From NCBI RefSeq assembly GCF_001314225.1, contig NZ_CP012697.1:4278001-4342000 (forward strand): 64,000 nucleotides of DNA. The letters run 5' to 3'. Shown here in pieces: positions 15,522-50,786 of this stretch. Source of the stretch: Microbacterium sp. No. 7. GTDB taxonomy: Bacteria > Actinomycetota > Actinomycetes > Actinomycetales > Microbacteriaceae. The translations under genes and the position numbers were made by a program. A model generated the notes under the pieces. That model searched no databases. It saw only the letters and a program-made list of their open reading frames with translations, and was not told the origin of the DNA. How positions within the stretch are numbered: the first letter of the stretch is position 1; each line of letters starts with the position of its first letter.

Positions 15522-15522
15522 A

Positions 15523-35357: not shown

Positions 35358-36488
35358 GTGGACAGGGAAGTGCTGCAGCGCACCGCGGATCTGGCGTACG
35401 ACGCCTCCGGGATGCCCACCGTCCTCACCGATGCCGACATGGTCTTCCTCGCCGCGAGCGCCCACTCCGGCGGCGTGGACGCCAATCGCCGCGTGACCGT
35501 GATGGAGCGTCGCGTGCAGCCGGGGGGCAAGATGCTCGCGGACGATCTGCGCTTCGCGCACCGTGAGAAGCCGTTCATCCTCCTTCCGCGTGCGGCGTTC
35601 GGCATGCAGCACCGGCGATGGTGCGTGCCCATTCGCGGCAACGGCCGCGCCCTGGGATATGTATGGGCGCTTCAGCCGATCCCGACCGATGCCGACCGAT
35701 CGGATGTGCTCCACCGCATCGGCGAACGGATGCAGCGCGACGCCGAGCTCATGAGCCTGCTGGGTCGGCGGCCCAAGCCCACCATGGAGCCGCTCGTCCA
35801 CGCGATCCTCCTCGGATCGAGCGGGCCGGACGACGCGCCCGCCGCGCGGCAGCGAGGCAACGTGGTGGTCTTCCGCCCACGCCCTGGCCGGGAACAGGCT
35901 TCCGACGACGACTCGTTCGAGCGCTGGCTGAACGAGCACCGCATCGCATGGCACCGGGTCCCGAGGGCGCACGTCGCGTTCGTGCGCGAGGAGCATCTGG
36001 AGCGTGCGCTCACATCACCCCGCGTCGCCGGCGTCAGCCCTGCCGGGATGCTGGGCACCGACGGCGCTGCGCTGCTCGGGCACGCCGACTTCGCCTCCCG
36101 GATGGCGGTGGCCTCCCCCGCACCGAGGAACGTCGTCGGGCAGCCCGGCGGCATCTGGCAGATGGCGCGGCTTCTCTCCGAGATGCGGCACTCGGTCGCG
36201 CCGGCGATCGCAGACCTCGGGTCGGCCGCGCCCGAGCTCGTCGACTCCGCCCTCGCATATATGGAGACGACGGCGTCCGCCGCAGACCTGGCCGCCCGGT
36301 TGCACATCCACCGGAGCACCCTCTACTACCGCCTGTCGCGCATCGAGCGGTTTCTGGGCGACGGATGGGCCACCGGCTCCGCCCGAACGGAGAACCATCT
36401 CGGCCTCCTGCTGTGGAAGCTCGAGCAGATCCCCCCGATCAGCGGCTCGTCCGGGCCGGGGGCCGTCGACAGGCCGTTCCCCGGATGA
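35358..36488 (+). CDS. PucR/CdaR-type transcription regulator
   Basis: 376 residues, GTG start with GGGAGGAG nine bases before. An N-terminal sensor-like region (DLAYDASGMPTVLTDADMVFLAAS), a middle part with 'VVVFRPRPGREQ', and a C-terminal helix-turn-helix 'ETTASAADLAARLHIHRSTLYYRLSRIERFLG' of the PucR type. Divergent from the aldolase-MFS unit, with a 224-base gap that should hold both promoters. Likely senses the imported acid. Confidence 0.87.
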   Translation: MDREVLQRTADLAYDASGMPTVLTDADMVFLAASAHSGGVDANRRVTVMERRVQPGGKMLADDLRFAHREKPFILLPRAAFGMQHRRWCVPIRGNGRALGYVWALQPIPTDADRSDVLHRIGERMQRDAELMSLLGRRPKPTMEPLVHAILLGSSGPDDAPAARQRGNVVVFRPRPGREQASDDDSFERWLNEHRIAWHRVPRAHVAFVREEHLERALTSPRVAGVSPAGMLGTDGAALLGHADFASRMAVASPAPRNVVGQPGGIWQMARLLSEMRHSVAPAIADLGSAAPELVDSALAYMETTASAADLAARLHIHRSTLYYRLSRIERFLGDGWATGSARTENHLGLLLWKLEQIPPISGSSGPGAVDRPFPG

Positions 36489-36503: not shown

Positions 36504-37184
36504 TCATCCCTCCACCGGGCCGTCCGGAGAACCGTCGCTCGAGGACCGACGAGGTGTGCGTGCGTCGTCGGTCCGGTCGGGAACGACCGACCGAACGCGA
36601 GAGACGAACGGGCGCACCGGGCTACGCCTGGCCTCGTATGCCTCGATCTCGTCCAGATGCGCGAGCGACTGCTCGATGGCATCGCGTCCCTCCAGGAGCT
36701 GTCGACGGTGATCGCGGGGTATGTCGAACGGAACCGCTCCCGCACCCCAATCGATGACGCAGGCGCGTAGATCGACATGCACCTCGACGCCGCCGCCGCC
36801 CTCCAGCCACGTCAGGAGCCGCTCGACATCGCTCTCCGCCGGCGCGGCGGTCAGAAGACCCGCGTTCGCCGAGTTGGCGCGGAAGATGTCGCCGAAGCGT
36901 TCTGACACCACGACCCGGAATCCCGCCTGCTGGATCGCCCACACCGCGTGCTCGCGCGAGGAGCCCGTCCCGAAGTCGGGCTCGGCGACGAGGATGGACG
37001 CCGTGCGGAACCGCTCCTGATTGAGCACGAAATCCGGATCCTCTCTCCAACGCGCGAAGAGGAACTCACCGAACCCATCGCGCTGGACGCGCTGGAGATG
37101 GCGGGCCGGGAGGATCTGGTCGGTGTCCACATTGCTCCGCCGCAGCGGTGCGGCGATGCCGGAGTGCTGGGTGAACGGGCGCAT
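36504..37184 (-). CDS. LeuD-type small subunit of an aconitase-family hydratase
   Basis: 226 residues from the ATG in the ATGA overlap with the LeuC-type gene. 'RRSNVDTDQILPARHL' and 'FGTGSSREHAVWAIQQAGF' are the swivelling-domain signatures of isopropylmalate isomerase small subunits. The C terminus has about 30 extra basic, Ser-rich residues. With its partner it should add or move water on a C4-C7 di- or tricarboxylate. Catabolic neighbours and no leu biosynthesis genes argue against leucine synthesis. Last gene of the 12-gene operon. Confidence 0.9.
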   Translation of the reverse strand: MRPFTQHSGIAAPLRRSNVDTDQILPARHLQRVQRDGFGEFLFARWREDPDFVLNQERFRTASILVAEPDFGTGSSREHAVWAIQQAGFRVVVSERFGDIFRANSANAGLLTAAPAESDVERLLTWLEGGGGVEVHVDLRACVIDWGAGAVPFDIPRDHRRQLLEGRDAIEQSLAHLDEIEAYEARRSPVRPFVSRVRSVVPDRTDDARTPRRSSSDGSPDGPVEG

Positions 37185-38614
37185 CAGAGTCGCTCCAGAT
37201 CCTCTGGCGAAGCCAGACGTCCCGCCACCGCGGTGGCGGCCGCCACGCGGGGAGCCACCAGATGCGTGCGTGCGCCGGCACCCTGCCGGCCCTCGAAGTT
37301 GCGGTTCGACGTGGAGGCGATGCGCTCCCCGCGTGCGGCGACGTCGTTGTTCAGACCCACGCAGAGCGAGCACCCCGATGAACGCCATTGCGCCCCGGAC
37401 GCACGGAACACCGCATCCAGGCCCAGCTCCTCCGCCCGGCGCTTCACCGCCTCGGAACCGGGAACGACCAGCATCCGCACCCCTTCCGCGACCCGGCGGC
37501 CGACGAGCACCTCGGCGGCTTCGAGGAGGTCTTCGATGCGACTGTTGGTGCACGATCCCAGGAAGACGGAGTCGATGCGGATATCGCGCATGGCCGTGCC
37601 GGGAGCCAGGCCCATGTAGTCCAGTGCCCGTTCGGCCGCAGCGCGCGAAGGCCCGTCCTCCATCGAGGCCGGGTCCGGCACGAAGCCCGATATCGGCACG
37701 CCCTGCGCGGGATTCGTGCCCCAGGTGACGAACGGCGCGAAGCCGGAGACGTCGACCTGGACGTGCCGGTCGTACGCTGCGCCCTCATCCGAGCAGTACG
37801 ACAGCCAGAGGGCGGCCGCCTCGTCCCAGTCCACTTGGGCGGTGAACGGCCTGGCCCGCAGATAGTCCAGGGTGACGGTGTCCGGAGCGATCATCCCTGC
37901 CCTCGCCCCCAGTTCTATGGTCATGTTGCAGAGCGTCATCCGCGCCTCGGTCGACAGCGTGGTCACGACCTCGCCGCGGTATTCGATCGCGAAGCCCTGG
38001 CCCGCCGAGGTTCCCAGCGTCGCCAGCAGGTTGAGCGCCAGATCCTTCGACGTCAATCGCGCCCGTGGCCGTCCGCACAGTTCGACCAGCATGCTCCGGG
38101 GCCGCCGCAACCGTATCGTCTGGGTCGCCAGCACGTGCTCGACATCGCTCGTGCCGATGCCGAACGCGAGCGCACCGAGCGCGCCGTGGGTCGACGTATG
38201 GCTGTCACCGCACACGATGATCGACCCCGGCTGCGACAGGCCCTGTTCGGGACCGATGACGTGCACGATGCCCTGGTCGGGCGCGCCCAACTGCGCCAGA
38301 TGAACCCCGCTCCTCCCCGCGTTCCGACGCAACGCGATGATCTGTTCGCGTGCAGCGACGGATGCGTTGCGCAGGCCCAGGCCGTCCGTGGGCACATTAT
38401 GGTCCTCCGTGGCGAAAGTGAGGTCCGGGCGACGCACCGCCCGCCCTGCGGCGGCCAGGCCGCCGAACGCCTGCGGGCTCGTGATCTCGTGCAGATAGTG
38501 CATGTCGACGTATACGAGATCGGGCTCGGCGGGCGTCGCACCCGCGGCGACGAGATGGTCGTCCCAGATCTTGTCGAGCATCGTTCGAGCATCGGTTCCG
38601 GTCAGAACGGCCAT
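37184..38614 (-). CDS. LeuC-type large subunit of an aconitase-family hydratase
   Basis: 476 residues from ATG 38614 (GGAGG nine bases upstream). '[18 protein letters not shown]', 'ATEDHNVPT', '[34 protein letters not shown]' and '[21 protein letters not shown]' match the family; the three 4Fe-4S Cys are in SCTN and '[10 protein letters not shown]'. The same subunit pair carries maleate, citraconate or 2,3-dimethylmaleate hydration elsewhere; substrate here is unknown. The start overlaps the SDR stop. Confidence 0.92.
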
Positions 38615-39336
38615 CGTCTCATGCCTCCGTCGAACGGGATCATCGCGCCGGTCAGGTAGGACGCCTCTGGCGAGAGGAGGAACGCCACGAGCGCGGCGAC
38701 CTCCTCCGCCTCCCCGAATCGCTGCAAGGGGATGCGCTCGCGCGCCCATTCCTCGCGCGCGACGGGATCGGGATGCAGACGTTCCAGGATCTGGGCGGTG
38801 CTGACACGGCCGGGGTTTATCGTGTTGGCGGTGATGCCGCGCTCGCCGACGGCGTTGGCCACGCCCTTCAGCCACACGGTGAACGCCGTCTTCGCCGCGG
38901 CCGACGCATTCGGCTGCGGGCCGGGCTCGACGACCCCTCCGATGTAGACGATGCGGCCGCCCTCGGGCATCGAGGGCAGAATGCCCTCGACCAGCTCACG
39001 CGGGGAATGGAACATCAGTTCCAGAGCTGCGTCCCAGCTCTCTCGGTCCGTGCCCAGCGGAGCCGCCACACTCGCACCGGCCGCCAGCACCAAGGCCCGC
39101 GGTGCCACGTTCCCCAGCTGTCTCAAGAGCGCCTCGCTCGCTCCTCGCACGGACAGGTCGGCCACGATCACCGCGCAGCCGGCACCATTCGATGCCGCCG
39201 CAGCCGCCACGGCGGCAAGGGACCCGCCGCTGCGCGCGACGAGAGCGAGATCGTACCCGCGTGCCGCGAGGGTCAGCGCGGTCGCGCGTCCGATCCCCGA
39301 CGATGCGCCCGTGACGACCGCAACCGGACGACTCAT
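38602..39336 (-). CDS. SDR-fold protein with altered catalytic residues
   Basis: 244 residues. The nucleotide-binding '[15 protein letters not shown]' and 'VLAAGAS' elements are intact, as is the '[13 protein letters not shown]' loop and the C-terminal '[16 protein letters not shown]'. But the active site differs: where a Ser is expected the chain reads '[11 protein letters not shown]', and the YxxxK Tyr is replaced (ASAAAK, Ser four before Lys). It may bind NAD(P) and substrate with different chemistry. Overlaps both neighbours. Confidence 0.85.
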
Positions 39337-40202
39337 GCCACGTCCTCCGCGTCAGCGGTCAGACGCATCTCCCAGCTCTGCAACGCCGGAAGGCCCAGCG
39401 CCGTGTTGAGGGCACTGAAGTCACGACCGCGATTGCCGACCTCGACCGCATCGTCGGCGTCGGTGAGCAGGCGGCGGGCCTCGCCTTCGGCGGCGCGCCA
39501 GACCGCGAAGAGCACCTGCACCGGGTACAGCACCAACCCCACGCCGAGCTCCCGCGCGTCGCGCAGCGAGATGGCGGGACTCACTCCGGTATCCGCAGCG
39601 TTGAAGACGATGGGCCCTCTCACTGCGTCGCGATGTCGGCGCACCTGGCTGAGGTCGGTGACGGCGTCCACGAATGTCGCAGACGCTCCGACGGCCTCGA
39701 ACGCGTGCACCCGCCAGATCGCCTCGTCGAGGCCATGCGTCGCAAGCGAATCGGTGCGGGCGATGACGGCGATGTCGTCGCCGGCGGCGTCGACCGCAGC
39801 GGCGATCCGCGCCACCGCGTCCGAGCGCGGGACCACCTCCTTGCCCGCGAAATGACCGCACCTCTTCGGATTGACCTGGTCTTCGATCTGCACGGCCGCC
39901 ACCCCGGCTCGCGCGAACTCGCGCACGGCGCGGGCGACGTTCGCGGGGCCCCCGTAGCCCGCGTCGATGTCAACAATCACGGGGACCGTGACCGCCGAGC
40001 TCGCGCGGGCCGCGATGGCGAGCACCTCGCCGAAGCTGAGCAGCCCAACGTCGGGCGCCGCGAGCGAGGAGGCCGTCAGCGCGTAGCTACCGAGGTAGAC
40101 GCAGTCGGCGCCTGCCGCCTCGACGGTTCGAGCGCTGAGCGCGTCGAACGCGCCGATGGCTCGTCGCGGCTGTTGTGTGGAGATCCAGTCTCTTGTTCTC
40201 AC
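39333..40202 (-). CDS. Isocitrate-lyase / PEP-mutase superfamily lyase
   Basis: 289 residues from GTG 40202 (AAAGG upstream). 'RAIGAFDALSARTVEAAGADCVYLGSYAL' and 'VPVIVDIDAGYGG' (metal Asp) precede 'IEDQVNPKRCGHFAGKEVV', the KRCGH catalytic loop with the acid/base Cys, then 'IARTDSLATHGLDEAI'. Members cleave a C-C bond in 2-methylisocitrate, 2,3-dimethylmalate, oxaloacetate and related acids. With the hydratase pair it makes a hydrate-and-cleave module. Confidence 0.9.
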   Translation of the reverse strand: MRTRDWISTQQPRRAIGAFDALSARTVEAAGADCVYLGSYALTASSLAAPDVGLLSFGEVLAIAARASSAVTVPVIVDIDAGYGGPANVARAVREFARAGVAAVQIEDQVNPKRCGHFAGKEVVPRSDAVARIAAAVDAAGDDIAVIARTDSLATHGLDEAIWRVHAFEAVGASATFVDAVTDLSQVRRHRDAVRGPIVFNAADTGVSPAISLRDARELGVGLVLYPVQVLFAVWRAAEGEARRLLTDADDAVEVGNRGRDFSALNTALGLPALQSWEMRLTADAEDVA

Positions 40203-40269
40203 TGCGAGTGACCTTTCTGGGCGGAGATGGGCAAGAGCCGACGGCCGGTGTCGCCGGCCACCGGTCCCG

Positions 40270-41301
40270 TCAGCTGTTGGGGCCGTACAGCTCGCGGATC
40301 TGCTCGAGCACTCCAGGGCCCCATGCCTCTTCGGCCTCCGTCGATCCGGCATCGCCGACGGCCCCGGCGAACTCCGCGATGTCGAGATCCGTGATCTGCA
40401 CCGCACCCGAGGACACCCATCCGTCCAGCAGCGCGTCGCTCTCCGCGCGCAGCTGCTCCTCCTGGTCGGAGACCAGCTGCGAGACCTCGGCCTCCATCAC
40501 GGCGCGGTCGCTTTCGCAGATGCTCTGGAACCTGTCCTCGTTGATGAGCAGGTATCTGAATCCCTGGGCATGGTTGGTGATCGCGACGTAGTCCTGGACC
40601 TCCTGCAGCTTTCCACTCTCGATCACGCTGGGCGGATTCTCCTGTCCGTCGACCGCGCCCGTCTGGAGGGCGTAGTAGGTGTCCGGAAACGGCAACGCCA
40701 CAGGCGTCGCACCGAACGCCTCGAACGCCTCGACAAGAGCAGGGATCTCCGGCACCCGGATCTTCAGGCCGTTGAGATCGGCGGGCTTGTGGATCGGGGT
40801 GTTGGACGTGATCCATCGGGGCGGGAAGTACTCGACCGCGAGCACCCGGATGCCTTCGCGCTCGCGGATCGCGTCCTTCCAGCCCTGCATGATCTCGCTC
40901 GTGGCGAAGTCCATCGCTTTCGCGTCGTCGAACAGATAGGGCACGAAGATGGGCGAGAACTCCTTGAGACCCGTCGAGCCGGCCTGGACCAGACCGAGAT
41001 TGCCCTGCTTGACCTGGGCGACCATCTCGATCTCGCCGCCGAGCTGGCCTCCGGGAAGGAGCCGGATCATGACACGTCCGTCGGTGCCCTCCTGCACGCG
41101 CTCGATGTAGCTCTTCAGCGCCTGCTCCCAGGCTGAGCCCGTGAGTGTGTCAGCCACCTCGAGAGCGATCGGCATGCAGTCGGCGACGGCGTCGCCATCG
41201 GCGGAGGCGGTGGTGGAGCCTTCATCCGTGCAGCCTGTCAGGGCTGCGGTCAGGGCCGCAGCGGTTCCCACGGCGGCTGCCAACTTCATTGTTGTGCGCA
41301 T
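40270..41301 (-). CDS. dctP: TRAP transporter solute-binding lipoprotein (DctP type)
   Basis: 343 residues. Signal peptide with lipobox 'TAALTGC', so anchored on the membrane. 'RVMIRLLPGGQLGGEIEMVAQVKQGNLGLVQAGSTGL' and 'GLKIRVPEIPALVEAFEAFGATPVALPFPDTYYALQTGAVDGQENP' with the conserved carboxylate-binding Arg (LKIRVP) mark the DctP family. It captures a carboxylate for DctQM. AAAGGA precedes the ATG. Confidence 0.93.
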   Translation of the reverse strand: MRTTMKLAAAVGTAAALTAALTGCTDEGSTTASADGDAVADCMPIALEVADTLTGSAWEQALKSYIERVQEGTDGRVMIRLLPGGQLGGEIEMVAQVKQGNLGLVQAGSTGLKEFSPIFVPYLFDDAKAMDFATSEIMQGWKDAIREREGIRVLAVEYFPPRWITSNTPIHKPADLNGLKIRVPEIPALVEAFEAFGATPVALPFPDTYYALQTGAVDGQENPPSVIESGKLQEVQDYVAITNHAQGFRYLLINEDRFQSICESDRAVMEAEVSQLVSDQEEQLRAESDALLDGWVSSGAVQITDLDIAEFAGAVGDAGSTEAEEAWGPGVLEQIRELYGPNS

Positions 41302-41369
41302 TGTTTTCCTTTCGGACAGGCTCGCGCCGGAGAGGAGCGAGCGCGGCTTCGGAATCGGTATGAGGCGGG

Positions 41370-42680
41370 TCAGGAAGGGGGGAAGAAGACGCCGGGCAGC
41401 CACAGCGATATCTGCGGCACGAGGGCCAGGATCACGGTGACGATGCCCAGCACTCCGACGTAGGGCCAGGATGCGCGCAGCAGGTCGTCCAGCGGCACGT
41501 CTCCGGTGCGCGAGACAGCGAACAGGTTCAGGCCCACCGGCGGTGATATCGCGCCGATCATGAGCGCCACGGTCATCACGATGCTGAAGTGGATCGGGTC
41601 GATCCCGAGGGCCGGCAGCAGCGGATAGACGACGGGCACGAGGATGAATATGAGCGGGACGGCCTCCAACACCAGGCCGAGCACGAGCAGCCCGGCGATG
41701 ATCGTCAGCCAGAGCAGCACCGGCGAGAACGAGAGCGCCTCGAGCCCGACGGCGAGGTGGTCGCCGACGCCCTCCAGTGCCAGCATCCAGCTGATACCGG
41801 CGCTCCCGGCGAGGGTGATGAGGATCGCCGATGTGCTCAGCGCCGCTTCGCGGAACGACTCCCACAGAGCACGACCCGTCGGCGGCCGAAAGACCGTGAA
41901 CAGCGCCAGGAAGGACACGGCGCACCCGAGAGCAGCCGCCTCGGTCGTGGTCGTCGCGCCGCTGACGAGGCCGCCGACGACGACGAGCGGTGTCGCCACG
42001 GCCACGAGGGCCTGCAGCAGCGCACGGCCGGCACCGACGCGCGCGGTCGCGAACACCTTGTGCGCGTCGACCCTCGGCCGACTCCGCGATCTGATGTAGA
42101 CCCAGATCATCAGACCGACGGCCACCGCGATGCCGGGCACGATTCCCGCGAGGAACAGCTGACCGATCGACAAGGATGCGAGACCACCGATGAGCACGAG
42201 CGGGATGCTCGGCGGGGTGATGGGGCCGATGGTCGCCGCAGCGGCCGTCAGCGCCCCCGCTTCAGCGGGACGCCATCCGGTCTTGACCATGGGACGGATC
42301 AGCACCATGCTCGTCGCGGCCGCGTCGGCGACCGACGAGCCCGACATTCCCGACATCCCTAGGTTTGCGGCGACATTGACGTAGCCCAGCGGTCCGCGGA
42401 GGCGGGCGAACGGGTACAGGAGCAGCCGCACGAGGGTGGTGGTGATGCCGCTCACGGTCATGAGCGCGCCCATGAGGATGAACAGCGGCACGGACACGAG
42501 AGCATCGGAGCGCAACTGATCGGCCATCAGCTGCGGAACGACGGTGAACTGATCGGCGCCTTGCAGAAGCATCTTCAGGGCGAAGTAGACCAGAGTGCTG
42601 CCGATCATCGACAGGGCGACATCGAACCCGATGACGATGAGGACGATCATCAACGCGACGCTGACGAGAAGAATGATCAC
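41370..42680 (-). CDS. dctM: TRAP transporter large permease (DctM type)
   Basis: 436 residues from GTG 42680 (AAAGGTG upstream); about 12 hydrophobic segments. 'SVPLFILMGALMTVSGI', 'NLGMSGMSGSSVADAAATS', 'ITPPSIPLVLIGGLA' and 'GAISPPVGLNLFAVSRTG' are DctM signatures. Sodium-driven uptake with the binding protein and small subunit. Start overlaps the DctQ stop. Confidence 0.94.
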   Translation of the reverse strand: MIILLVSVALMIVLIVIGFDVALSMIGSTLVYFALKMLLQGADQFTVVPQLMADQLRSDALVSVPLFILMGALMTVSGITTTLVRLLLYPFARLRGPLGYVNVAANLGMSGMSGSSVADAAATSMVLIRPMVKTGWRPAEAGALTAAAATIGPITPPSIPLVLIGGLASLSIGQLFLAGIVPGIAVAVGLMIWVYIRSRSRPRVDAHKVFATARVGAGRALLQALVAVATPLVVVGGLVSGATTTTEAAALGCAVSFLALFTVFRPPTGRALWESFREAALSTSAILITLAGSAGISWMLALEGVGDHLAVGLEALSFSPVLLWLTIIAGLLVLGLVLEAVPLIFILVPVVYPLLPALGIDPIHFSIVMTVALMIGAISPPVGLNLFAVSRTGDVPLDDLLRASWPYVGVLGIVTVILALVPQISLWLPGVFFPPS

Positions 42681-43261
42681 CGGCGCACCTTTCGCAGGAT
42701 GATTCCGGCGATGCGCACGACGGCGACGACCGCGACGCCCCCGGCGAAGACGACGACGGACAGGTAGCCGACGGCCGCGGGAAGGCCCAGCAGCGACGAC
42801 GCGGCGACCGCCCATCCCTGCACGCCGAGGAACCTCAGTGCCGCCCACAGCAACGCCCCCGAAGTCAGCAGCGCCGCAGCCTCGTAGGAGACGGTGCGCG
42901 GACGCCAGCGCCCGGGCACCGACAGGCTCGTGCCCTGGTAGTAGCTCACGAACGCGCCGACGCACACCATCCACACGAGCAGCAATCGGGTGAGCTCGTA
43001 CGACCACGGCGGGACATGCACGCTGATGGCCCGTCCTCCCACCTGAACCATCTGGATGAGGAAGATCCCCAGGATCGCGAGGATCGTCAGGGTCTCGAAC
43101 GCTGCCACCGCCCGCCGCAGCTGCGGTGCCGGCTCAGGAATCGCCTCCGCGTCGGCGGCGGTGTCCGTGAGCAGCGACACGACCTCGGTTCGCTCTTCGC
43201 CGGGCAGGGGCACGAGGTTCGTGCTGGGAGCGAACGCTTCCTCATCACGCTGGTCGCTCAT
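42677..43261 (-). CDS. dctQ: TRAP transporter small permease (DctQ type)
   Basis: 194 residues from ATG 43261, four membrane helices after a 50-residue acidic N-terminal extension. 'WSYELTRLLLVWMVCVGAFVSYYQGTSLSV' is the DctQ signature (E-x-x-R, then W/G). The extension is longer than usual. Overlaps the IclR stop by four bases. Confidence 0.9.
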   Translation of the reverse strand: MSDQRDEEAFAPSTNLVPLPGEERTEVVSLLTDTAADAEAIPEPAPQLRRAVAAFETLTILAILGIFLIQMVQVGGRAISVHVPPWSYELTRLLLVWMVCVGAFVSYYQGTSLSVPGRWRPRTVSYEAAALLTSGALLWAALRFLGVQGWAVAASSLLGLPAAVGYLSVVVFAGGVAVVAVVRIAGIILRKVRR

Positions 43262-44043
43262 CGTCCCACCGCCTTCGACAACGTCCCGGCGGCGTCGACC
43301 ACGGCGCGGATGTAGGACAGGGCGTGCCTCTCGTCGAAACGCGATACCGGCACGGGCATCGCGATGCATCCGACGACACCGGACGCATCGAACACGGGTG
43401 CGGCGAACCCGACCGACTCGGCGAGCTTCTCTCCGTTGGAACGATCCCATCCGTGTTCCTTGATTCTCTCCAGCCTCGCCAGCACGACCTCGAACGGCGG
43501 CTTGGCCGCGTTCTTCGCCGGCGAGTCGCCCTCTTCGTCGTAGATCGCGCGCACCGTCTCGTCGGGCAGGAACGCCAGGATCGATCGGCCTGAGCATCCC
43601 CACAGCAGCGACTGAGGCGTGCGCACCGGAAGAACGAAGCGCAGAGGGTGGATGCTCGGCGTGACCGCCTCGATGCTCATCTTTCGCAACGACGGAAGAT
43701 ACACGCCCAGTTGGGCGGTCTCTCCTGTGGCTGCAGCGAGCTTGTCCAGGATCGGCTGGGCGAAGTCGGCCAGGCCGTATCGGGCGGCCAGCAAGGACGC
43801 GAGGCGATGCAGGCCGGGCCCGGCGTCATAGCGTTGAGTGTCGGGGTGGAACGACACCAGGCCTTCGGCGCGCAGCAGTTGCAACAACCTGTGCACCGTG
43901 CTCACGGCCAGGCCGAGATCGGATGCGAGGTCGGTGATGCGCACGGGTTCGCCCGACTCCGCGATCAGCTTGAGTATGCGCGAGGCACGGGCAACGGTCC
44001 CGCGGGGCGAGTCCGCGTCGGACGATACGGGGATAGCCGACAT
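43258..44043 (-). CDS. IclR-family transcription regulator
   Basis: 261 residues from ATG 44043. N-terminal winged HTH 'RITDLASDLGLAVSTVHRLLQLLRAEGLV', then the IclR effector domain with 'GCSGRSILAFLPDETV' and 'GVVGCIAMPVPVSRF'. Located inside the operon between HyuB and the transporter, so likely autogenous control. TTCCA-N5-TGGAA palindromes in front of the operon are probable binding sites. Confidence 0.92.
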   Translation of the reverse strand: MSAIPVSSDADSPRGTVARASRILKLIAESGEPVRITDLASDLGLAVSTVHRLLQLLRAEGLVSFHPDTQRYDAGPGLHRLASLLAARYGLADFAQPILDKLAAATGETAQLGVYLPSLRKMSIEAVTPSIHPLRFVLPVRTPQSLLWGCSGRSILAFLPDETVRAIYDEEGDSPAKNAAKPPFEVVLARLERIKEHGWDRSNGEKLAESVGFAAPVFDASGVVGCIAMPVPVSRFDERHALSYIRAVVDAAGTLSKAVGR

Positions 44044-44045
44044 TC

Positions 44046-45662
44046 CTAGTCCTCTCTTCTCTTCTCGTTCTGCGGGGCGCCGTAGCCGCCGCCCCCGGGA
44101 GTCTCCGCGATGAACAGATCCCCCGCCTGCACTCTGAAACCGGAGAGAAGACCGGGCAGGTTCAACTCCTCCCCCTCGCGGATGATCGTGAAGCGACTGG
44201 CGGCGCCGTCGCCCCCGCCGGCCTTGCCGACGGGCGGGTTCTGCATGCCGTGCCCGCGGATCGACAGAGTGCCGGGACGCAGGAATCGCACCACGCGACG
44301 CATGCCCGACCCGCCTGCCCATCGCCCTGGACCGCCGGAGCCGTGTCGGATCTCGTAACGTTCGACGAGCATGGGGAACTCCGCCTCTAGCATCTCGGCG
44401 GGCACATTGACCGCGTTGGTGACAGCGTTCTCGACCGCGTCGACTCCGCACCGGCCGGCTCTCGCGCCCGATCCGCCGGTGAGGGAGTTGTCGACCATGA
44501 TGCTGGCGGCCTCGCCCGGCAACGGATCAGGAGCCCACACGTAGGGCATGGTCGTGCCTCCCGACGAGGATGCCGCGCCCTCGTCGCCGGCGGCCTGACT
44601 CAGAGCATCCAGCACGCACTCGAAGGCCAGTGCCGCAACAAGAGCCCGCGCAGCGACGGGGGCCGGAGTCACGGGGTTCATGAGCGACCCTTCCACGCAG
44701 GTGGTGGTGAGGAGCCGCTGGATCCCACCGTTGAAGGGCACATCGGAGCCGAGGATGCCCCGCAACGCGCACAGCGCAGCGGAGTAGCCGTTCGAGGGAA
44801 CCACGTTGATCGGTCGTTCCACTTGGGGTGATGAGTCCGAGAAGTCCACGATCACCTGCTGGTCGGTGACCGTCACCGCAGCGGCTACGACGGCGGGCGG
44901 GCTGTCATCGTCGGGTCGCTGATTGTCGATGCGTCGCGACGCGCGGTACACGCCGGGAACGAGGGCACGCAGCCGTCCGGCGCCGAGACGTTCGGAGTGA
45001 GCGAGGTACCTCTCCATGGCCGACAGGGTGCGCCCGGCACCGTGGCGCTCGATCGTCTCCCGCAACCGGGTCACCCCGAGCGCGCACGCGGCGAGCTCGG
45101 CACGCAGGTCGGCTTCCAGATTGACCGGGGTGCGGGTGTTGGCGCAAAGGATGGCGAGTATCCGTTCATCGACCTGGCCGCCGCGCACGATGAGGGTGGG
45201 CGGCAGGCGGAAGCCCTCCTGGAACAGATCGGTGGAATCGGCTGGCATGCTGCCGGGCACCTTTCCACCCACGTCGGTGAAGTGGGCGATGGTCGCGACG
45301 TAGGCCAGGGTCGCGCCATCGATGCGCACGGGTGCGACGCAGAGGAAGTCGTTCAAGTGCGGCGCCCCCATGGCGGGGTCGTTGGTCAGCAGCACGTCAC
45401 CCTCGCCGAGCGATTCGCGGTACTCGCGAACCATCGATTGTGCAGCCTGCGAGAGCACGCCCATCTGCAACGGAATCGCGTCCGCTTGTCCCCAGAATCG
45501 GAAATCGGCGCCCAGCACCGCGGCCGAGCAGTCGAACGATTCCTTGATCACCGACGAGTAGGCCGCTCGGATGAGCGTCAGTTCGATCTCGTTTGAGATG
45601 GTGCGCATGTTGTTGCCCAGGATCTGCGCACTGAACAGGTCGACGTCCTCGATGCACATCAC
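44046..45662 (-). CDS. Hydantoinase/oxoprolinase subunit B (HyuB type)
   Basis: 537-538 residues; starts GTG 45662 or ATG 45659, both served by GGAGGGG. 'MRTISNEIELTLIRAAYSSVIKESFDCSAAVLGAD', 'NDPAMGAPHLNDFLCVAPV', 'GKVPGSMPADSTDLFQEGFRLPP' and 'GGGGYGAPQNEK' match the family. Works with HyuA in ATP-driven opening of hydantoins, oxoproline or lactams, or in carboxylation in other branches. Both subunits are complete and separate. Confidence 0.93.
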   Translation of the reverse strand: MMCIEDVDLFSAQILGNNMRTISNEIELTLIRAAYSSVIKESFDCSAAVLGADFRFWGQADAIPLQMGVLSQAAQSMVREYRESLGEGDVLLTNDPAMGAPHLNDFLCVAPVRIDGATLAYVATIAHFTDVGGKVPGSMPADSTDLFQEGFRLPPTLIVRGGQVDERILAILCANTRTPVNLEADLRAELAACALGVTRLRETIERHGAGRTLSAMERYLAHSERLGAGRLRALVPGVYRASRRIDNQRPDDDSPPAVVAAAVTVTDQQVIVDFSDSSPQVERPINVVPSNGYSAALCALRGILGSDVPFNGGIQRLLTTTCVEGSLMNPVTPAPVAARALVAALAFECVLDALSQAAGDEGAASSSGGTTMPYVWAPDPLPGEAASIMVDNSLTGGSGARAGRCGVDAVENAVTNAVNVPAEMLEAEFPMLVERYEIRHGSGGPGRWAGGSGMRRVVRFLRPGTLSIRGHGMQNPPVGKAGGGDGAASRFTIIREGEELNLPGLLSGFRVQAGDLFIAETPGGGGYGAPQNEKRRED

Positions 45663-47734
45663 GCATCCCCTCCCGCGGCATCAGAGATGCGAAGCATACG
45701 GAGCCCTCCGCCGCCGATCGGCTCAACGGTCCATCCAGCGGGCACGATCGCCGAGGTGGCGGCATCCTCGATCACGATCGGACCGCGGGCGGTGTCCGCA
45801 ACCGCGCTGCGCGCCACGACGGTGACGGGCACAGCGCCGTCGCCGAAATCGATGTCACGTCGGTCGTGGTCTACGGCGAACGCCTCCCCGGTCTTGGAGA
45901 CGGGAACCGGATCGATGTGCTGTCTCTTGGTCGCACGCAGGGTGACCAGTTCGCACGGCGAGTCTTCTCGCATGTGGCCGTAGATGCGGGCATGTCGTCT
46001 GTCGAACGCGGCCTTCGCGCCGTTCAGATCGAGCGAGCCCTCCGTGACCACGACCGGGACGTTCAACTCGTACGACTGACCGGGATAGCGGAGGTCGGCG
46101 CTGAACCCGAGCTCGCCGACCGTGCCGGCCGACTGGGCGTCGATGCGGGCGACCAGCTCGCAGATCGCCTGGCTCGTGGCCTGTCCGGCGGCAGGATCGT
46201 CGGTGCGCACCATCAGGCCCGCGCTCTCGTCTATCTGCACGACCGCATCGAGAAGCCCCCGCGCGGAGTGCACGCCCGCGAGCGGCGGGACGAGGACACG
46301 GGTGATGCCGAGGTCCTCGGCGATCGCCCACGCATGCAGCGGCCCCGCACCACCTGAGGCGAGCAGAGCGAAGTCGCGGGGGTCGAGCCCGCGTGAGACG
46401 GTCACCATGCGAACGGCGTCCGACATCTGCGCCGTGGCGATGCGCAGAATCGCGACGGCTGCACCATCGGCCGTCGTGCCGAGCATGCGACCCAGCTGGG
46501 CGAGCGCATCGGACGCCTGCGCTCGGCCGACGCCCGCGAGATAGCTGCCGCGACTGGGGCGCAACAGCCCCAGTTGCACGTACGCATCCGTCACGGTGGG
46601 CTGTACGCCGCCCCGCAGATAGCACGCCGGTCCGGGATCAGCGCCGGCGCTGCGCGGGCCCACCCGCAACGCACCGGCCTCGTCGACCCACGCGATGCTC
46701 CCGCCTCCCGTGCCCACCTCGGCGATGTCGATGACCGGTGTGCGCAGGGGATAGCCAGTGCCTTTGCTCAGCATGCTTCCGCCGTGGGCGGCACCGCCCA
46801 CCTCGTAGTCGAAGTTGATCGCGTACTCACCGCCGTGGATGAGCGCCGCCTTCGCAGTCGTCCCTCCCATGTCGAACGCGATGACGTCGTGCTCGCCGAC
46901 GAGCGCGCCGAACGCCTTCGCTCCGATGACGCCCGCGGCAGGCCCGGACTCCACGAGCTCTTCGGGATGATCGGCCGCTTGCTCGGCAGGAATCAGGCCT
47001 CCGCTGGACTTCATGACGACATAGCTGTCGTCGTAGCCGATCTCGCGCAGGCGTCTCGACAGGTTCGCAAGATATCTCGACACGAGCGGGCCGAGGTAGG
47101 CCGCGATCGCCGTCGTGCTCGCCCTCTCAAACTCACGCGGCTGCGGAAGCACTTCGTGTGAGGAGAACACCGGGCAGCTCACTCCCGCGTTCCTCAACGC
47201 CGCCGCGAGTCGCCGCTCGTGCACCGGGTTGACATGGGCATGCAGGAGGCAGATCGCGACGGCGTCCGGAGCGAGCTCGCGGATGCGATCGGCCAACGCC
47301 GCGGCCTCGAGCGGGTCGAGGGCGATACGCACATCGCCGCGGGCGGTCAGGCGCTCATCCACCTCCAACACGTCTGCGCGGTCGACGAGCGGCGCGAGCC
47401 GCTCGTCGACCAGCGAGAACGGATCGATGCGGCGCAGACGTGCGATCGTCAGCAGATCGCCGAATCCCTCGGTCACCAGGAGGGCGACGCGGGCACCGGT
47501 ACGCTCCAGCAGCGCGTTGGTCGCGGCCGTCGTGGCGTGCACGACCTCGTTGAGCTCGGTCGCCGCAGCGCCGGCGCGAGCGAGCGCGTGGCGGATGCCG
47601 TCGATCACTCCCGCGCTGGGGTCGGGGGAGGTGGACGGCACCTTCGCCGCGATCAGCTCGCCCCCGAGGCGTAGCACGACGTCCGTGAACGTGCCGCCGA
47701 CATCGACGGCGACACGTGTAGGCGAGGAGGGCAT
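45659..47734 (-). CDS. Hydantoinase/oxoprolinase subunit A (HyuA type)
   Basis: 691 residues. 'RVAVDVGGTFTDVVL' (first phosphate-binding loop), 'VVHATTAATNALLERTGA', 'FDMGGTTAKAALI' (second phosphate loop) and 'ASGGAGPLHAWAIAEDLGI' identify the ATP-grasping actin-like subunit that phosphorylates the amide or carbonyl oxygen. Stop overlaps HyuB. It is the operon's most likely entry enzyme if the substrate is cyclic amide. Confidence 0.94.
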   Translation of the reverse strand: MPSSPTRVAVDVGGTFTDVVLRLGGELIAAKVPSTSPDPSAGVIDGIRHALARAGAAATELNEVVHATTAATNALLERTGARVALLVTEGFGDLLTIARLRRIDPFSLVDERLAPLVDRADVLEVDERLTARGDVRIALDPLEAAALADRIRELAPDAVAICLLHAHVNPVHERRLAAALRNAGVSCPVFSSHEVLPQPREFERASTTAIAAYLGPLVSRYLANLSRRLREIGYDDSYVVMKSSGGLIPAEQAADHPEELVESGPAAGVIGAKAFGALVGEHDVIAFDMGGTTAKAALIHGGEYAINFDYEVGGAAHGGSMLSKGTGYPLRTPVIDIAEVGTGGGSIAWVDEAGALRVGPRSAGADPGPACYLRGGVQPTVTDAYVQLGLLRPSRGSYLAGVGRAQASDALAQLGRMLGTTADGAAVAILRIATAQMSDAVRMVTVSRGLDPRDFALLASGGAGPLHAWAIAEDLGITRVLVPPLAGVHSARGLLDAVVQIDESAGLMVRTDDPAAGQATSQAICELVARIDAQSAGTVGELGFSADLRYPGQSYELNVPVVVTEGSLDLNGAKAAFDRRHARIYGHMREDSPCELVTLRATKRQHIDPVPVSKTGEAFAVDHDRRDIDFGDGAVPVTVVARSAVADTARGPIVIEDAATSAIVPAGWTVEPIGGGGLRMLRISDAAGGDA

Positions 47735-47739
47735 CGGAC

Positions 47740-48105
47740 TCAGTCCTCCGCGTCGAGCACGTCGCGGAGCAACGGGTAGGCCGACAGCGGCGCGTGGTAG
47801 CCGACGACGAGACCGGCGAGCCGCAGGGCCGACGTGATCTCGTCGACGCTGGCGCCGGCGCGCATCGCCTCCTCCATGTGGAACTTGCAGCCGTAGTGGA
47901 AGTACACCGCGGCATCGACAGCGATCAGGATCAGCTGCTTCTCCCGCTCTGTCAGCGCCGAGCTCTCGCCCATCGCATGCATGTACGCCCCGTGGAACGC
48001 CGCGAGCGCGCCCGGGTCGAGCTCCGCTGCCTGCCGAAAGGCGCCGGGGACGATGCCCCGGTCCTTCTCCACCTGTGCGAGGACCTCTGCAGCCGTCTTC
48101 TCCAT
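47740..48105 (-). CDS. Carboxymuconolactone decarboxylase-family protein
   Basis: 121 residues from ATG 48105 (GGAGAG upstream). 'FRQAAELDPGALAAFHGAYMHAMGES', 'TEREKQLILIAVDAAVYFHYGCKFHMEEAMRAGAS' and 'EITSALRLAGLVVGY' give the CMD fold. It has a Cys and His (CKFH) but lacks the second Cys of AhpD peroxidases, so redox activity is uncertain; decarboxylase or isomerase-like action is possible. Six bases before HyuA. Confidence 0.87.
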   Translation of the reverse strand: MEKTAAEVLAQVEKDRGIVPGAFRQAAELDPGALAAFHGAYMHAMGESSALTEREKQLILIAVDAAVYFHYGCKFHMEEAMRAGASVDEITSALRLAGLVVGYHAPLSAYPLLRDVLDAED

Positions 48106-48114
48106 GAATGACTC

Positions 48115-48128
48115 TCCGTTGAGTGGAA
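48115..48128 (-). promoter_or_regulatory. Third IclR-type half-palindrome
   Basis: On the minus strand TTCCA-CTCAA-CGGA overlaps the ribosome site of the CMD gene; the same spacing as the two sites at 49070-49104, with one arm imperfect. Confidence 0.4.
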
Positions 48129-48158
48129 TATGCTTCCGATGATCAGAACGATGGCTAT

Positions 48159-49061
48159 TCAAATCCCAGCGGAATCAATGGGCAAGTCTTTTCCGTTTTT
48201 CTCCATCGCGAACACCCACGCCATCCGCTGCGCCGCGACACGGACGCTGCGCGAGGAGTGCGCGTAGAACCCGCGCCCGCTCTTCGCGCCGAGCCGCCCC
48301 GCGGCGACGAGATCGAGCAGCACGTCGGAAGGCACTTCGGAGTTGTCAAGGGTGGGGAAGATCTCGGCGCACAGAGCTGCGAAGACATCGAGCCCACCGA
48401 GATCTGCGACGCCTATCGGCCCGGCGATGGCCCAGCGTGGTGCCAGCGCGCTCATCACGACCTCGTCGACGGCCTCGGCATCCGCCACTCCCGCCTCGAT
48501 GAGGGCAAGGGACTCGCGAAGCATCGCGGCCTGCAGTCGATTCGCCACGAATCCGGTGGTCTCCGTCCTCAGGAGCACCGGCCGCTTGCCCAGGCGTCGC
48601 ATCAGGCCGACGACGATGTCCACAGCAGCCGGATCGGTACCCGCATGGGGCACGACCTCCACGAGAGGCACGACGTCCGGCGGGTTGAAGAAGTGCGCGA
48701 TCAGCAGCCGTTCGGGCCGCCGCACGAAAGGGGCGAGCACACTCGGTCGGAACGTGGATGTGTTCGAGGCGATCACGGCGTCCGCGGAGGCTTCCGACAC
48801 CACTCGGAGCACACGCTCCTTCACCTCCAGATCCTCGAACACGGCCTCGAACACGATGTGGGCATCCGACACGCTCTCCTCCGCGCTCGGGTGCATCTGG
48901 AGCTCGGCCAGCCCGTGATCACGCATGTACGCGGCAGTGAGCGGTGTGGGGTCATAGGCGGACACCGTGCCACCGGCCGCCAAGAGGGCACGCGCGATGC
49001 CCCGGCCCATCGTCCCCAAACCGATCACGGCCGCACGGACGTTCTGGATCTCGGTAACCAT
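48159..49061 (-). CDS. 3-hydroxyacyl-CoA dehydrogenase-like protein
   Basis: 300 residues from ATG 49061. 'AAVIGLGTMGRGIARALLAAGG' binds NAD; 'VFEAVFEDLEVKERVL', 'SNTSTFRPSVLAP', 'LIAHFFNPPDVVPLVEVVPHAGT' hold the catalytic His and Glu region; 'VANRLQAAMLRESLALIEAGVADAEAVDEVV' begins the C-terminal domain. Oxidises a 3-hydroxy acid (CoA-bound or free, as in carnitine or gulonate dehydrogenases). First gene of the operon. Confidence 0.9.
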   Translation of the reverse strand: MVTEIQNVRAAVIGLGTMGRGIARALLAAGGTVSAYDPTPLTAAYMRDHGLAELQMHPSAEESVSDAHIVFEAVFEDLEVKERVLRVVSEASADAVIASNTSTFRPSVLAPFVRRPERLLIAHFFNPPDVVPLVEVVPHAGTDPAAVDIVVGLMRRLGKRPVLLRTETTGFVANRLQAAMLRESLALIEAGVADAEAVDEVVMSALAPRWAIAGPIGVADLGGLDVFAALCAEIFPTLDNSEVPSDVLLDLVAAGRLGAKSGRGFYAHSSRSVRVAAQRMAWVFAMEKNGKDLPIDSAGI

Positions 49062-49148
49062 TTGTATTGTTCCATTCAGTGGAAAGCTGATCCATTGTGT
49101 GGAACCAATGAATAACATGTCCGTGTCGGCTCAGCCAAGGAGGACCAG
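49062..49148. promoter_or_regulatory. Divergent control region with two TTCCA-N5-TGGAA palindromes
   Basis: Site 1, TTCCA-TTCAG-TGGAA, is a perfect palindrome at 49070-49084. Site 2, TCCA-TTGTG-TGGA, is at 49091-49103. Their centres are 20 bases apart, two helical turns. Both lie between the divergent dehydrogenase and SDR genes, where an IclR regulator would act. Confidence 0.65.
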
Positions 49149-49934
49149 ATGGAGCTATCGCTCAGCGGAAAACGGATCGTGGTCACCGGGGGCACATCCG
49201 GTATCGGCCGCGCCACCGCCAAGCTGCTGGTCGCCGAGGGCGCTTCCGTGCTCTCCGTCGGCCGGGCCGCCGTCATCGACCCCATGCCCGGCGAGACCAT
49301 CGTCGACATAGATCTCTCGGCGACTGATGCCGACCGCCGCCTCGGCGCGGCAGTCGACGCCGCCTGGGGCGGTCGATGCGACGGACTCGCCGCCGTCGCG
49401 GGAGTCATGCGGATGACGGACGGCGGCGTTCTCGACGCTGCTGACCACGACTGGCGCGCCACGTGGGAGGTGAACGTACTGGGCACCGTCCGCGCACTGC
49501 GCGCCACCGTTCCGCCGATGATCGCCGCAGGCGGCGGAGCGGTCGTCCTGATGTCATCGGTGCGCGCCGTCATGCCCGACTTCCGCCAACCCGACTACTC
49601 GGTGACCAAGGCGGCCGTTCGATCGCTCGCACGCATGACCGCGGACGAGTTCGCCCATGCCGGGGTGCGTGTGAACTCGGTCAGTCCCGGCGCCGTGCGC
49701 ACCGACGCCTGGGATGCGCCCGGCGGCGTGGGCGACGTGCTCGCGACTCGGCACGGCCGGGATCGTGAGGAGGCGATCGCGCATGAGATGGCCGTCGTGC
49801 GTGGCGTGCCGCTGGGTCGCATCGGAACGCCGGAGGAGATCGCGCGCGTCGTGGCGTTCCTCCTCTCACCCGTCTCCTGCTACCTCACCGGGGAGGACAT
49901 CCGTGCCGACGGAGGCTACGTCCGCACCCTCTGA
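49149..49934 (+). CDS. Short-chain dehydrogenase/reductase
   Basis: 261 residues, ATG with AAGGAGG eight bases before. '[17 protein letters not shown]', 'VLMSSVRAVMP' with catalytic Ser, 'YSVTKAAVRSLARM' with Tyr and Lys, 'NSVSPGAVRTDAW' and 'TGEDIRADGGYVRTL' are all canonical. An NAD(P)-dependent alcohol dehydrogenase probably in the same pathway. Divergent from the operon and sharing its operators. Confidence 0.92.
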   Translation: MELSLSGKRIVVTGGTSGIGRATAKLLVAEGASVLSVGRAAVIDPMPGETIVDIDLSATDADRRLGAAVDAAWGGRCDGLAAVAGVMRMTDGGVLDAADHDWRATWEVNVLGTVRALRATVPPMIAAGGGAVVLMSSVRAVMPDFRQPDYSVTKAAVRSLARMTADEFAHAGVRVNSVSPGAVRTDAWDAPGGVGDVLATRHGRDREEAIAHEMAVVRGVPLGRIGTPEEIARVVAFLLSPVSCYLTGEDIRADGGYVRTL

Positions 49935-50021
49935 TCGCCTGACGGCGCCCCACGCTCCAACTGCCGCTCCTCCCCCTCCCACGCCCCGACTCAAAGCCGA
50001 TATCTGTTGTGGCTTGAGGTC

Positions 50022-50500: not shown

Positions 50501-50786
50501 TCACCGGCCCAAATCTACGAACACTCTCGCTACTCATAAAGACGGGCCGACTTCTTATGAGCAACTCAGCTTCTGGATCGCGAGAACCACGCCATGTGGC
50601 CCCGTGCGAGCAGCACCCGCCTGACCGCCGATGCGCGGACGGTACACAGCCGAGACCACGGAGCCAACGACTGACCTGGGGCGGGAGCCATCCAGCTCGG
50701 TAGGCACGCGGCTGCGCTAAGGACCTCTCCATGGTGGAAGATGAGAGCTACGGTCTTCATATATGTGGCGCGACGGAGGCGACGTG

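What the first reader, a model, noticed from the sequence alone, without database searches (positions are those of the whole stretch)
36504..49934. Twelve-gene catabolic operon joining HyuAB, TRAP import, an aconitase-type hydratase and an isocitrate-lyase-type cleavage enzyme
Twelve leftward genes overlap or nearly touch. Aconitase-family hydratase plus PEP-mutase/ICL lyase is the same enzyme pair as dimethylmaleate hydratase and dimethylmalate lyase of nicotinate fermentation, but here it comes with an ATP-dependent HyuAB pair, a CMD protein, two dehydrogenases and a TRAP importer. The inferred logic: uptake of a carboxylate, ring or amide opening, oxidation, hydration of a substituted maleate and cleavage to two small acids. 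I know no described pathway with this exact set.
Basis: partly seen in the sequence, partly recalled or inferred. Interest (0 to 1): 0.85.

Follow-up and report, generated by a model that had tools for sequence, protein, structure and literature searches.

The report
Recurrent hydantoinase–hydratase–lyase catabolic operon
A bacterium (probably a Microbacterium) carries a twelve-gene operon that probably imports an unknown nitrogen-containing ring acid, opens it and cuts the resulting branched acid in two; similar core gene sets turn up in unrelated bacteria, apparently assembled more than once, which points to a breakdown pathway that seems not to have been described.

Summary
In detail: twelve leftward, nearly touching genes (36504-49061) encode LeuD, LeuC, SDR, ICL/PEP-mutase-type lyase, TRAP DctP/M/Q, IclR, HyuB, HyuA, a CMD protein and a HADH-type dehydrogenase. 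The last gene of the stated span (SDR, 49149-49934) is on the other strand. The genome has a separate leuCD; the operon's LeuC lies outside the canonical actinobacterial group. In 366 genomes of the genus only this one has the lyase; a 15.4-kb public contig appears to hold LeuC, lyase and HADH orthologues. The key result is recurrence: LeuC + ICL-type lyase + HyuAB cluster in eight other loci that I opened (Azospirillum, Sulfitobacter, Roseomonas, Neorhizobium, Paraburkholderia, another actinobacterial family), each with an isochorismatase-type amidase, six with an FAD enzyme. LeuC was recruited more than once, once as the distant type-2 form. But the window lacks the amidase and FAD enzyme, its LeuC is not the type-2 class where I place dimethylmaleate hydratase, and the substrate is unknown. 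Ten full-text searches found no paper on it. I call it a new variant of a known kind: an alkylmaleate hydratase-lyase pathway fed by ATP-dependent ring opening.

The parts
36504..37184 (-). LeuD-type small subunit of an aconitase-family hydratase
   Evidence: TIGR00171 154 bits over cut-off 116; PF00694; 53% to own canonical LeuD; loop Tyr of 17 of 18 canonical LeuDs is His29
37184..38614 (-). LeuC-type large subunit, paralogue of leucine-biosynthesis LeuC
   Evidence: TIGR00170 615 bits over 560; 58% to own LeuC; Cys355, Cys415, Cys418 in GSCTN and CSLC contexts (Fe-S role recalled); separate clade
38602..39336 (-). short-chain dehydrogenase SDR1
   Evidence: PF13561; none of the 25 NCBIfam models shown reaches its cut-off
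39333..40202 (-). isocitrate-lyase/PEP-mutase superfamily C-C lyase
   Evidence: PF13714; PrpB TIGR02317 219 bits, below 354; KRCGH motif kept, Glu188 of E. coli PrpB is Asp
40270..41301 (-). TRAP solute-binding protein DctP
   Evidence: PF03480; best solved relative 4pc9
41370..42680 (-). TRAP large permease DctM
   Evidence: TIGR00786 over cut-off; PF06808
42677..43261 (-). TRAP small permease DctQ
   Evidence: PF04290, 29.4 bits against cut-off 28.3
43258..44043 (-). IclR-family regulator
   Evidence: PF09339 + PF01614; best NCBIfam BhcR 103 bits, below 350
44046..45659 (-). HyuB-type subunit (Hydantoinase B)
   Evidence: PF02538 482 bits; CapB metal ligands D41, H99, D102, H124 have counterparts D43, H101, D104, H126 at a constant offset of 2
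45659..47734 (-). HyuA-type ATP-binding subunit
   Evidence: PF05378 + PF01968; DVGGT at 11, DMGGT at 288, GADPGP at 364 match CapA ATP motifs
47740..48105 (-). carboxymuconolactone-decarboxylase-family (CMD/AhpD-like) protein
   Evidence: PF02627
48159..49061 (-). 3-hydroxyacyl-CoA-dehydrogenase-fold dehydrogenase (HADH)
   Evidence: PF02737 + PF00725; best solved relative 4om8, FHMPC dehydrogenase; no NCBIfam cut-off reached
49149..49934 (+). divergent short-chain dehydrogenase SDR2; possible partner, not in the operon
   Evidence: opposite strand, 30-87 bp from the HADH start; PF13561

Best explanation
The operon encodes uptake and breakdown of an unidentified nitrogen-containing ring (or amide) carboxylate. 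The TRAP system imports it; HyuAB opens the ring with ATP (cyclic imide, lactam or hydantoin type); SDR1/HADH (and perhaps SDR2) adjust the redox state; the catabolic LeuCD paralogue hydrates the resulting substituted maleate to a substituted malate; the ICL-type lyase cleaves that to a 2-oxo acid (glyoxylate or pyruvate) and a second carboxylic acid; IclR regulates. Shown by sequence: gene order, families, kept catalytic motifs, the second leuCD, recurrence and repeated recruitment of the core. Inferred: every substrate, the reaction order, and the roles of HADH, SDRs and CMD.
For: (1) LeuC was found in 285 of 296 genomes of the class; 11 showed two copies. In 4 of those 11 (this genome, G239, G115, G192) an ICL-type gene lies within about 1.1 kb of one copy. 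Of 48 other LeuC loci with flanks of up to 1.5 kb (some cut by contig ends), 3 hold an ICL-type gene: one copy each of G239, G115 and G192. (2) HyuAB joins LeuC and lyase in G115, two Azospirillum, two Sulfitobacter, Roseomonas, Neorhizobium and Paraburkholderia records: eight loci opened. Of the 38 best plasmid records for the Azospirillum lyase (56% identity or more), HyuA lies within 15 kb in 29, type-1 LeuC in 23, both in 22. (3) Repeated recruitment: strongly supported branches force at least 4 gains or losses of the cluster label among cluster-linked and canonical LeuCs; the Paraburkholderia locus uses a type-2 LeuC (PRK00402 520 bits over 385). (4) Partners fit: isochorismatase-type amidases in 8 of those 8 loci (checked by HMM in four, by annotation in four), an FAD enzyme in 6 of 8 (flavocytochrome c/tricarballylate-dehydrogenase-like in the two checked, below cut-offs), or CoA-transferase plus acyl-CoA dehydrogenase beside LeuCD and HyuAB in Tistrella. 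(5) HyuAB keeps the ATP and metal motifs essential in caprolactamase; the lyase keeps K-x-C-G-H. (6) Two malate-synthase-family genes could use glyoxylate. (7) LeuC, lyase and HADH relatives (75%, 71%, 61%) each list a longest contig of 15,377 bp.
Against: Of the nine loci with HyuAB, LeuC and lyase, the window is the only one without the amidase, and it has neither the FAD nor the CoA-type desaturase; tblastn of 15 such proteins found no relative in the 64-kb window (the rest of the genome was not searched for them). Its lyase and HyuA do not group with the proteobacterial cluster proteins, so the shared logic is by kind, not by descent. Window LeuC and LeuD pass NCBI's leucine-pathway cut-offs. 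In G239 and G192 both LeuC copies fall inside the canonical actinobacterial group, so those are at best recent captures, and which copy is canonical is my assignment. In 7 of the 11 two-copy genomes no lyase was found beside either copy. The LeuC-linked lyase of Terrarubrum lacks the Cys and His of the motif. In the G115 20-kb stretch no LeuD was found. The window lyase has Asp for PrpB Glu188. The scan for HADH relatives gave 80 loci without HyuA, HyuB, DctP, CMD or lyase hits. The shared contig is inferred from length only. No biochemistry.
Confidence: 0.55

Rival explanations
1. The ring substrate is a hydantoin or pyrimidine-like ureide: HyuAB makes an N-carbamoyl compound, an amidase removes the carbamoyl group, and LeuCD/lyase act on the deaminated carbon chain.
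For: Two Asp/Glu/hydantoin racemase-family genes beside the Neorhizobium locus; ureidoglycolate-lyase-like and molybdenum hydroxylase genes in G115; RutB/biuret-hydrolase-like amidases, below cut-offs; RutA/SfnG-like monooxygenase in Variovorax RA8, below cut-offs.
Against: The two FAD enzymes checked are succinate/tricarballylate-dehydrogenase-like, not amino-acid-oxidase-like; a hydantoin route does not directly give a maleate; the window itself has no amidase.
Confidence: 0.2
2. HyuAB is an ATP-dependent ketone carboxylase (acetone/acetophenone-carboxylase-like) that makes a beta-keto acid.
For: Same superfamily and ATP/metal motifs; acetophenone carboxylase gamma matches HyuA at 224 bits.
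Against: CapA (376 bits) and N-methylhydantoinase (400 bits) are closer; only two subunits; neighbouring amidases in the other loci fit hydrolysis.
Confidence: 0.1
3. Two unrelated modules share one transcript: HyuAB/TRAP/HADH for one substrate, LeuCD/lyase/SDR1 for another.
For: LeuCD-lyase pairs occur without HyuAB in the stretches shown (Azospirillum p3, Terrarubrum, Variovorax RA8, G192, G239); an ICL-type gene lies next to HyuAB without LeuC in G295.
Against: HyuA and LeuC both near the lyase in 22 of 38 best plasmid records, and in G115.
Confidence: 0.15
4. LeuCD is a redundant leucine-biosynthesis isomerase that happens to sit here.
For: Both subunits pass leuC/leuD cut-offs.
Against: Another leuCD exists elsewhere; separate clade; linkage of extra LeuC copies to a lyase in 4 of 11 two-copy genomes.
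Confidence: 0.05

Closest known systems
End of nicotinate fermentation in Eubacterium barkeri (dimethylmaleate hydratase DmdAB + 2,3-dimethylmalate lyase; pathway recalled, no paper read)
   Same: Aconitase-family hydratase followed by ICL/PEP-mutase-family lyase on a substituted maleate/malate
   Different: Type-1 LeuC instead of the type-2/HacA class; HyuAB and TRAP in the operon; none of the twelve genes is a cobalamin mutase
Caprolactam hydrolase of Pseudomonas jessenii (CapAB; PMC8453981, passages read)
   Same: ATP-dependent HyuA/HyuB pair with the same ATP motifs and Asp-His-Asp-His metal site
   Different: Window proteins far below CapA/CapB equivalog cut-offs; as I recall, that pathway has no LeuCD or ICL-type step
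HyuAB-isochorismatase-ICL-LeuCD loci of Azospirillum, Sulfitobacter, Roseomonas, Neorhizobium (found here)
   Same: HyuAB, LeuCD, ICL-type lyase; TRAP genes in the two Sulfitobacter loci and beside the A. ramasamyi locus
   Different: They carry an amidase and an FAD enzyme; the window has SDR, HADH, CMD instead; enzymes not orthologous by tree
Branched short-chain dicarboxylate (itaconate) cluster of Pseudomonas (PMC9875883, passages read)
   Same: Catabolism of C5 branched dicarboxylates
Methylcitrate cycle lyase PrpB
   Same: Fold and catalytic motif of the lyase
   Different: 219 bits against cut-off 354; loop S-G-G is G-S-Y, Glu188 is Asp

Membership tests
Type-2 LeuC/HacA class to which I assign DmdA (assignment recalled) | Large subunit reaches PRK00402, TIGR01343 or TIGR02086 cut-off | tested here: not met
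   345.4 < 385; 311.3 < 385.7; 289.6 < 410.15
Dimethylmaleate hydratase | Hydrates 2,3-dimethylmaleate | not testable with these tools
   needs assay
Leucine-biosynthesis isopropylmalate isomerase LeuCD | leuC and leuD equivalog cut-offs | tested here: met
   615.1 > 560.25 and 154.2 > 116.25
Leucine-biosynthesis isopropylmalate isomerase LeuCD | Sole or canonical copy, grouping with the genus LeuC | tested here: not met
   another leuCD present; window LeuC outside the group holding own LeuC
2-methylisocitrate lyase PrpB | TIGR02317 cut-off | tested here: not met
   219.3 < 354.4
ICL/PEP-mutase superfamily C-C lyase | K-x-C-G-H lyase motif with Asp58, Asp85, Asp87, Arg158, Asn210 (PrpB numbering; roles recalled) | tested here: met
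   all present; Glu188 is Asp
2,3-dimethylmalate lyase | Closest characterised relative or activity | tested here: inconclusive
   3fa3 158.8 bits, 3eoo methylisocitrate lyase 177.5 bits
ATP-dependent hydantoinase/lactamase HyuAB/CapAB | ATP motifs DxGGT, DMGGT, GxxPGP and Asp-His-Asp-His metal site | tested here: met
Caprolactamase CapAB | NF050156/NF050157 cut-offs | tested here: not met
   376 and 193 against 1000
Acetophenone carboxylase | NF042975/NF042960 cut-offs | tested here: not met
   224.3 against 1500, 142.4 against 1250
TRAP transporter | DctP, DctQ and DctM present together | tested here: met
HyuAB-isochorismatase-lyase-LeuCD loci found here | Isochorismatase-type amidase in the cluster | tested here: not met
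   no relative in the window

The most novel reading that the evidence does not exclude
The operon is one of several independently assembled versions of an undescribed, widespread pathway for alkyl-substituted cyclic imides or related rings: HyuAB opens the imide, an amidase frees an alkylsuccinate or alkylmaleate, a TcuA-like flavoprotein or a CoA-transferase/acyl-CoA dehydrogenase pair desaturates it where needed, a captured LeuCD hydrates it, and an ICL-type lyase splits it. Tetrapyrrole-derived maleimides such as hematinic acid (which carries the carboxylate that a TRAP importer wants) would be natural substrates; hematinic acid would give pyruvate and glutarate.
Probability: 0.35. Interest if true: 0.78.

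Novelty: new variant of a known kind. Interest (0 to 1): 0.62.

Why it matters
A leucine-biosynthesis enzyme seems to have been captured more than once beside the same kind of lyase and ring-opening enzyme; that repetition is good evidence of one reaction logic. It means that genes annotated leuC/leuD in such clusters are probably misnamed, and it gives testable loci, some in named strains with annotated replicons (Azospirillum ramasamyi, A. oryzae, Sulfitobacter SK012), for a breakdown route that I could not find described.

Tried and rejected
HADH as anchor for the single genome-contig scan: best 80 of 501 confirmed stretches kept; at E <= 1e-8 none has a HyuA, HyuB, DctP, CMD, LeuD or lyase hit, one (L132) has a DctM-like gene and one (L108) a 25% LeuC-like gene. 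So HADH marks a wider dehydrogenase family, not this pathway; neighbours were family-checked only for parts of L059 and L060. Nicotinate fermentation proper: no type-2 hydratase here; a cobalamin mutase was not searched for in the genome. G239 adjacency was first suspected to be chance because its LeuC groups with the canonical one; kept after a second copy was found. RHA1 pRHL3 HADH, Streptomyces NBC_01643 HyuA, Geobacillus pGYMC5201 LeuC and Streptomyces NBC_00161 LeuC stretches show no related cluster; the Nocardia farcinica stretch has no annotation. Thalassospira and Roseivivax lyase stretches show no LeuC or HyuAB. My first ORF picker chose antisense ORFs in this GC-rich DNA and was replaced. 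The plasmid counts are of records, not independent events: of the 22 with both partners 10 are Azospirillum and 9 Sulfitobacter. A type-2 LeuC was seen in one Paraburkholderia record; five more with HyuA near the lyase were not opened. The isonicotinate/citrazinate idea gave no paper that I judged relevant from the listing. Structure prediction was not run.

Rows chosen or dropped: one search used 78 of the 119 LeuC hits other than the window's own entry. One search used hand-picked hits (seven beside the window). One search took 13 of the HyuA loci at hand; 4 were dropped because the typed motif was not found.
Full report
The observation. The window is G000:C1:4278001-4342000 of a 4.83-Mb genome in 3 contigs. 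Its genus is not named by the tool; the closest named relative of the HADH is from Microbacterium ulmi, so I take it as probably Microbacterium. Twelve minus-strand genes run from HADH (start 49061 or 49118) to LeuD (stop 36504); eight of eleven junctions overlap or lie within 5 bp, with gaps of 67 and 68 bp around DctP. SDR2 (49149-49934) is on the other strand.

Is LeuCD the leucine enzyme? The genome has three matches to the aconitase family: an adjacent leuCD at 2.03 Mb (58% and 53% identical to the window pair), one at 2.38 Mb that is 24% identical to the window LeuC (probably aconitase, not checked further), and the window copy. The window pair still passes the leuC/leuD equivalog cut-offs. 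In a tree of 83 LeuCs the window protein groups with P0242 and P0243 (75%) and then P0247, apart from the set of 78 rows that holds own LeuC (99/94; the bootstrap had not settled). In the second tree it falls outside the 15-row group that holds the actinobacterial canonical copies (96/90). The cysteines in the Fe-S-type contexts are kept (C355, C415, C418); in LeuD the loop Tyr of 17 of 18 canonical proteins is His29, while the cluster-linked LeuDs have Phe, Leu or His and E. coli LeuD has Phe, so this is no clear marker.

How rare is it? Of 366 genomes of the genus, only this one has the lyase at E <= 1e-54 (6 candidates scored for each genome shown). HyuA had no relative above 43% identity among the matches at E <= 1e-60 in 295 genomes (3 candidates scored for each genome shown). 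Among about 5.8 billion proteins two lyase relatives reach 71%; of the 120 listed, one fragment reaches 59% and the rest at most 51%. Lyase P0003, HADH P0123 and LeuC P0243 all list a longest contig of 15,377 bp. I read this as one orthologous operon on one contig, but I could not open that contig.

Does the gene set recur? In 296 genomes of the class, 285 have a LeuC match at E <= 1e-120 and 11 show two. One copy lies beside an ICL-type gene in 4 of the 11: this genome, G239, G115 and G192; in the other 7 none was found near either copy (some flanks are cut by contig ends). G115 reads ICL(-), SDR-LeuC-HyuA-HyuB-isochorismatase-HisD-like(+), with a molybdenum hydroxylase large subunit and a ureidoglycolate-lyase-like gene upstream. 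G192 reads arylmalonate-decarboxylase-like, FAD monooxygenase, GntR, TPP enzyme, two isochorismatases, ICL, LeuC, LeuD. G239 has ICL near LeuCD plus CoA-transferase III, acyl-CoA dehydrogenase, mesaconyl-CoA-hydratase-like, CitE/HpcH-like and PrpD genes.

On plasmids of Proteobacteria the set is plain: Azospirillum ramasamyi and A. oryzae leuD-leuC-FAD enzyme-cysteine hydrolase-HyuA-HyuB-ICL-ABC importer-GntR; Sulfitobacter S190 and SK012 with TRAP genes beside leuCD; Roseomonas haemaphysalidis and Neorhizobium petrolearium with MmgE/PrpD; Paraburkholderia with a 422-aa type-2 LeuC and no FAD enzyme in the cluster. Tistrella has LeuCD, HyuAB and the hydrolase with CoA-transferase and acyl-CoA dehydrogenase in place of the FAD enzyme, and its lyase on another replicon. 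So eight opened loci hold HyuAB, LeuC and lyase together; 8 of 8 have an isochorismatase-type (cysteine) hydrolase and 6 of 8 an FAD enzyme (not G115, not Paraburkholderia). The window is the ninth and has neither. Of the 38 best records for the A. ramasamyi lyase (of 421 with any match), HyuA lies within 15 kb in 29, type-1 LeuC in 23, both in 22; a partner not among the 50 rows listed counts as absent. Pairs without HyuAB in the stretch shown also exist: Azospirillum p3, Terrarubrum (its lyase lacks the Cys and His of the motif), and Variovorax RA8, which has a RutA/SfnG-like monooxygenase and an isochorismatase instead.

Common descent or convergence? In the LeuC tree the nine proteobacterial cluster proteins form one clade (96/94); the window clade, G115, G192 and G239 fall elsewhere, G192 and G239 inside the canonical actinobacterial group, G239 next to its own other copy; starred branches force at least 4 gains or losses of the label. 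The window lyase groups only with P0002, P0003 and P0059, apart from the proteobacterial lyases; window HyuA is a long lone branch. So the same enzyme kinds were brought together more than once, at least as far as these trees show.

Mechanism. HyuA keeps DVGGT at 11, DMGGT at 288 and GADPGP at 364, and HyuB keeps D43, H101, D104, H126, the counterparts of residues needed or conserved in caprolactamase (PMC8453981, passages only). In the other loci the amidases checked are nearest to RutB, biuret hydrolase and PRK11440, and the two FAD enzymes checked to flavocytochrome c and tricarballylate dehydrogenase, all below curated cut-offs: ring opening, amide removal, desaturation to a maleate, hydration, cleavage. 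The lyase keeps K-R-C-G-H and most PrpB active-site residues, but Glu188 is Asp, as in G115 and G192, and the S-G-G loop is G-S-Y. The window lacks amidase and desaturase relatives and has SDR1, HADH and CMD instead, so its own upstream chemistry differs and is unknown. Two malate-synthase-family genes would allow use of glyoxylate.

Literature. Ten full-text searches of the held open library showed me no paper on this gene set. Two asked for the combination and returned none; a third returned two listings, the caprolactam proteomics paper and one on small RNAs of Ruegeria, which I did not open. The library misses most subscription papers, so this is weak evidence of novelty. I read passages of PMC8453981 and PMC9875883 only; the rest were search listings.

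Verdict.

Noticed in passing
window 32973-36488: MFS transporter (below the 2A0106 cut-off, next best shikimate transporter), HpcH/HpaI-type aldolase (below cut-offs) and a divergent PucR-type regulator: probably a separate small catabolic unit beside the operon.
   Followed up: partly
L059 (Microbacterium ulmi) 2471-10906: The closest named HADH relative (68%) lies in another catabolic cluster: two phosphotriesterase-like, two TPP enzymes, a xylose-isomerase-like protein and a class-III aminotransferase.
   Followed up: partly
L218 (Paraburkholderia AP028202) 8971-16077: HyuAB-isochorismatase-ICL set but with a type-2 LeuC (PRK00402 520 bits over 385): replacement of the hydratase by a distant relative.
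   Followed up: partly
L220 (Variovorax RA8) 6297-14321: LeuCD-ICL-isochorismatase with an SfnG/RutA-like flavin monooxygenase, flavin reductase and RibBA instead of HyuAB: the ring-opening enzyme may be swapped.
   Followed up: partly
L141 (Streptomyces NBC_01003 plasmid) and second LeuC copies of G018, G133, G056: A separate LeuC clade (100/100) that in L141 sits with methylaspartate mutase, aspartate kinase and aspartate-semialdehyde dehydrogenase; looks like another, perhaps biosynthetic, use of LeuCD.
   Followed up: no
window lyase residue 179 (PrpB Glu188): Asp in the window lyase, its three closest relatives, P0026 and the LeuC-linked lyases of G115 and G192; Glu in G239 and the proteobacterial cluster lyases except Terrarubrum (Ser).
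   Followed up: partly
window 50000-51758: GC is 0.62 at 50001-52000 next to a DUF4357 protein (50763-51758), just beyond the operon; possible edge of an acquired segment.
   Followed up: no
L207, G000:C2 31496-32197: Another PEP-mutase-family gene on the 135-kb contig C2, without the C-G-H motif.
   Followed up: no
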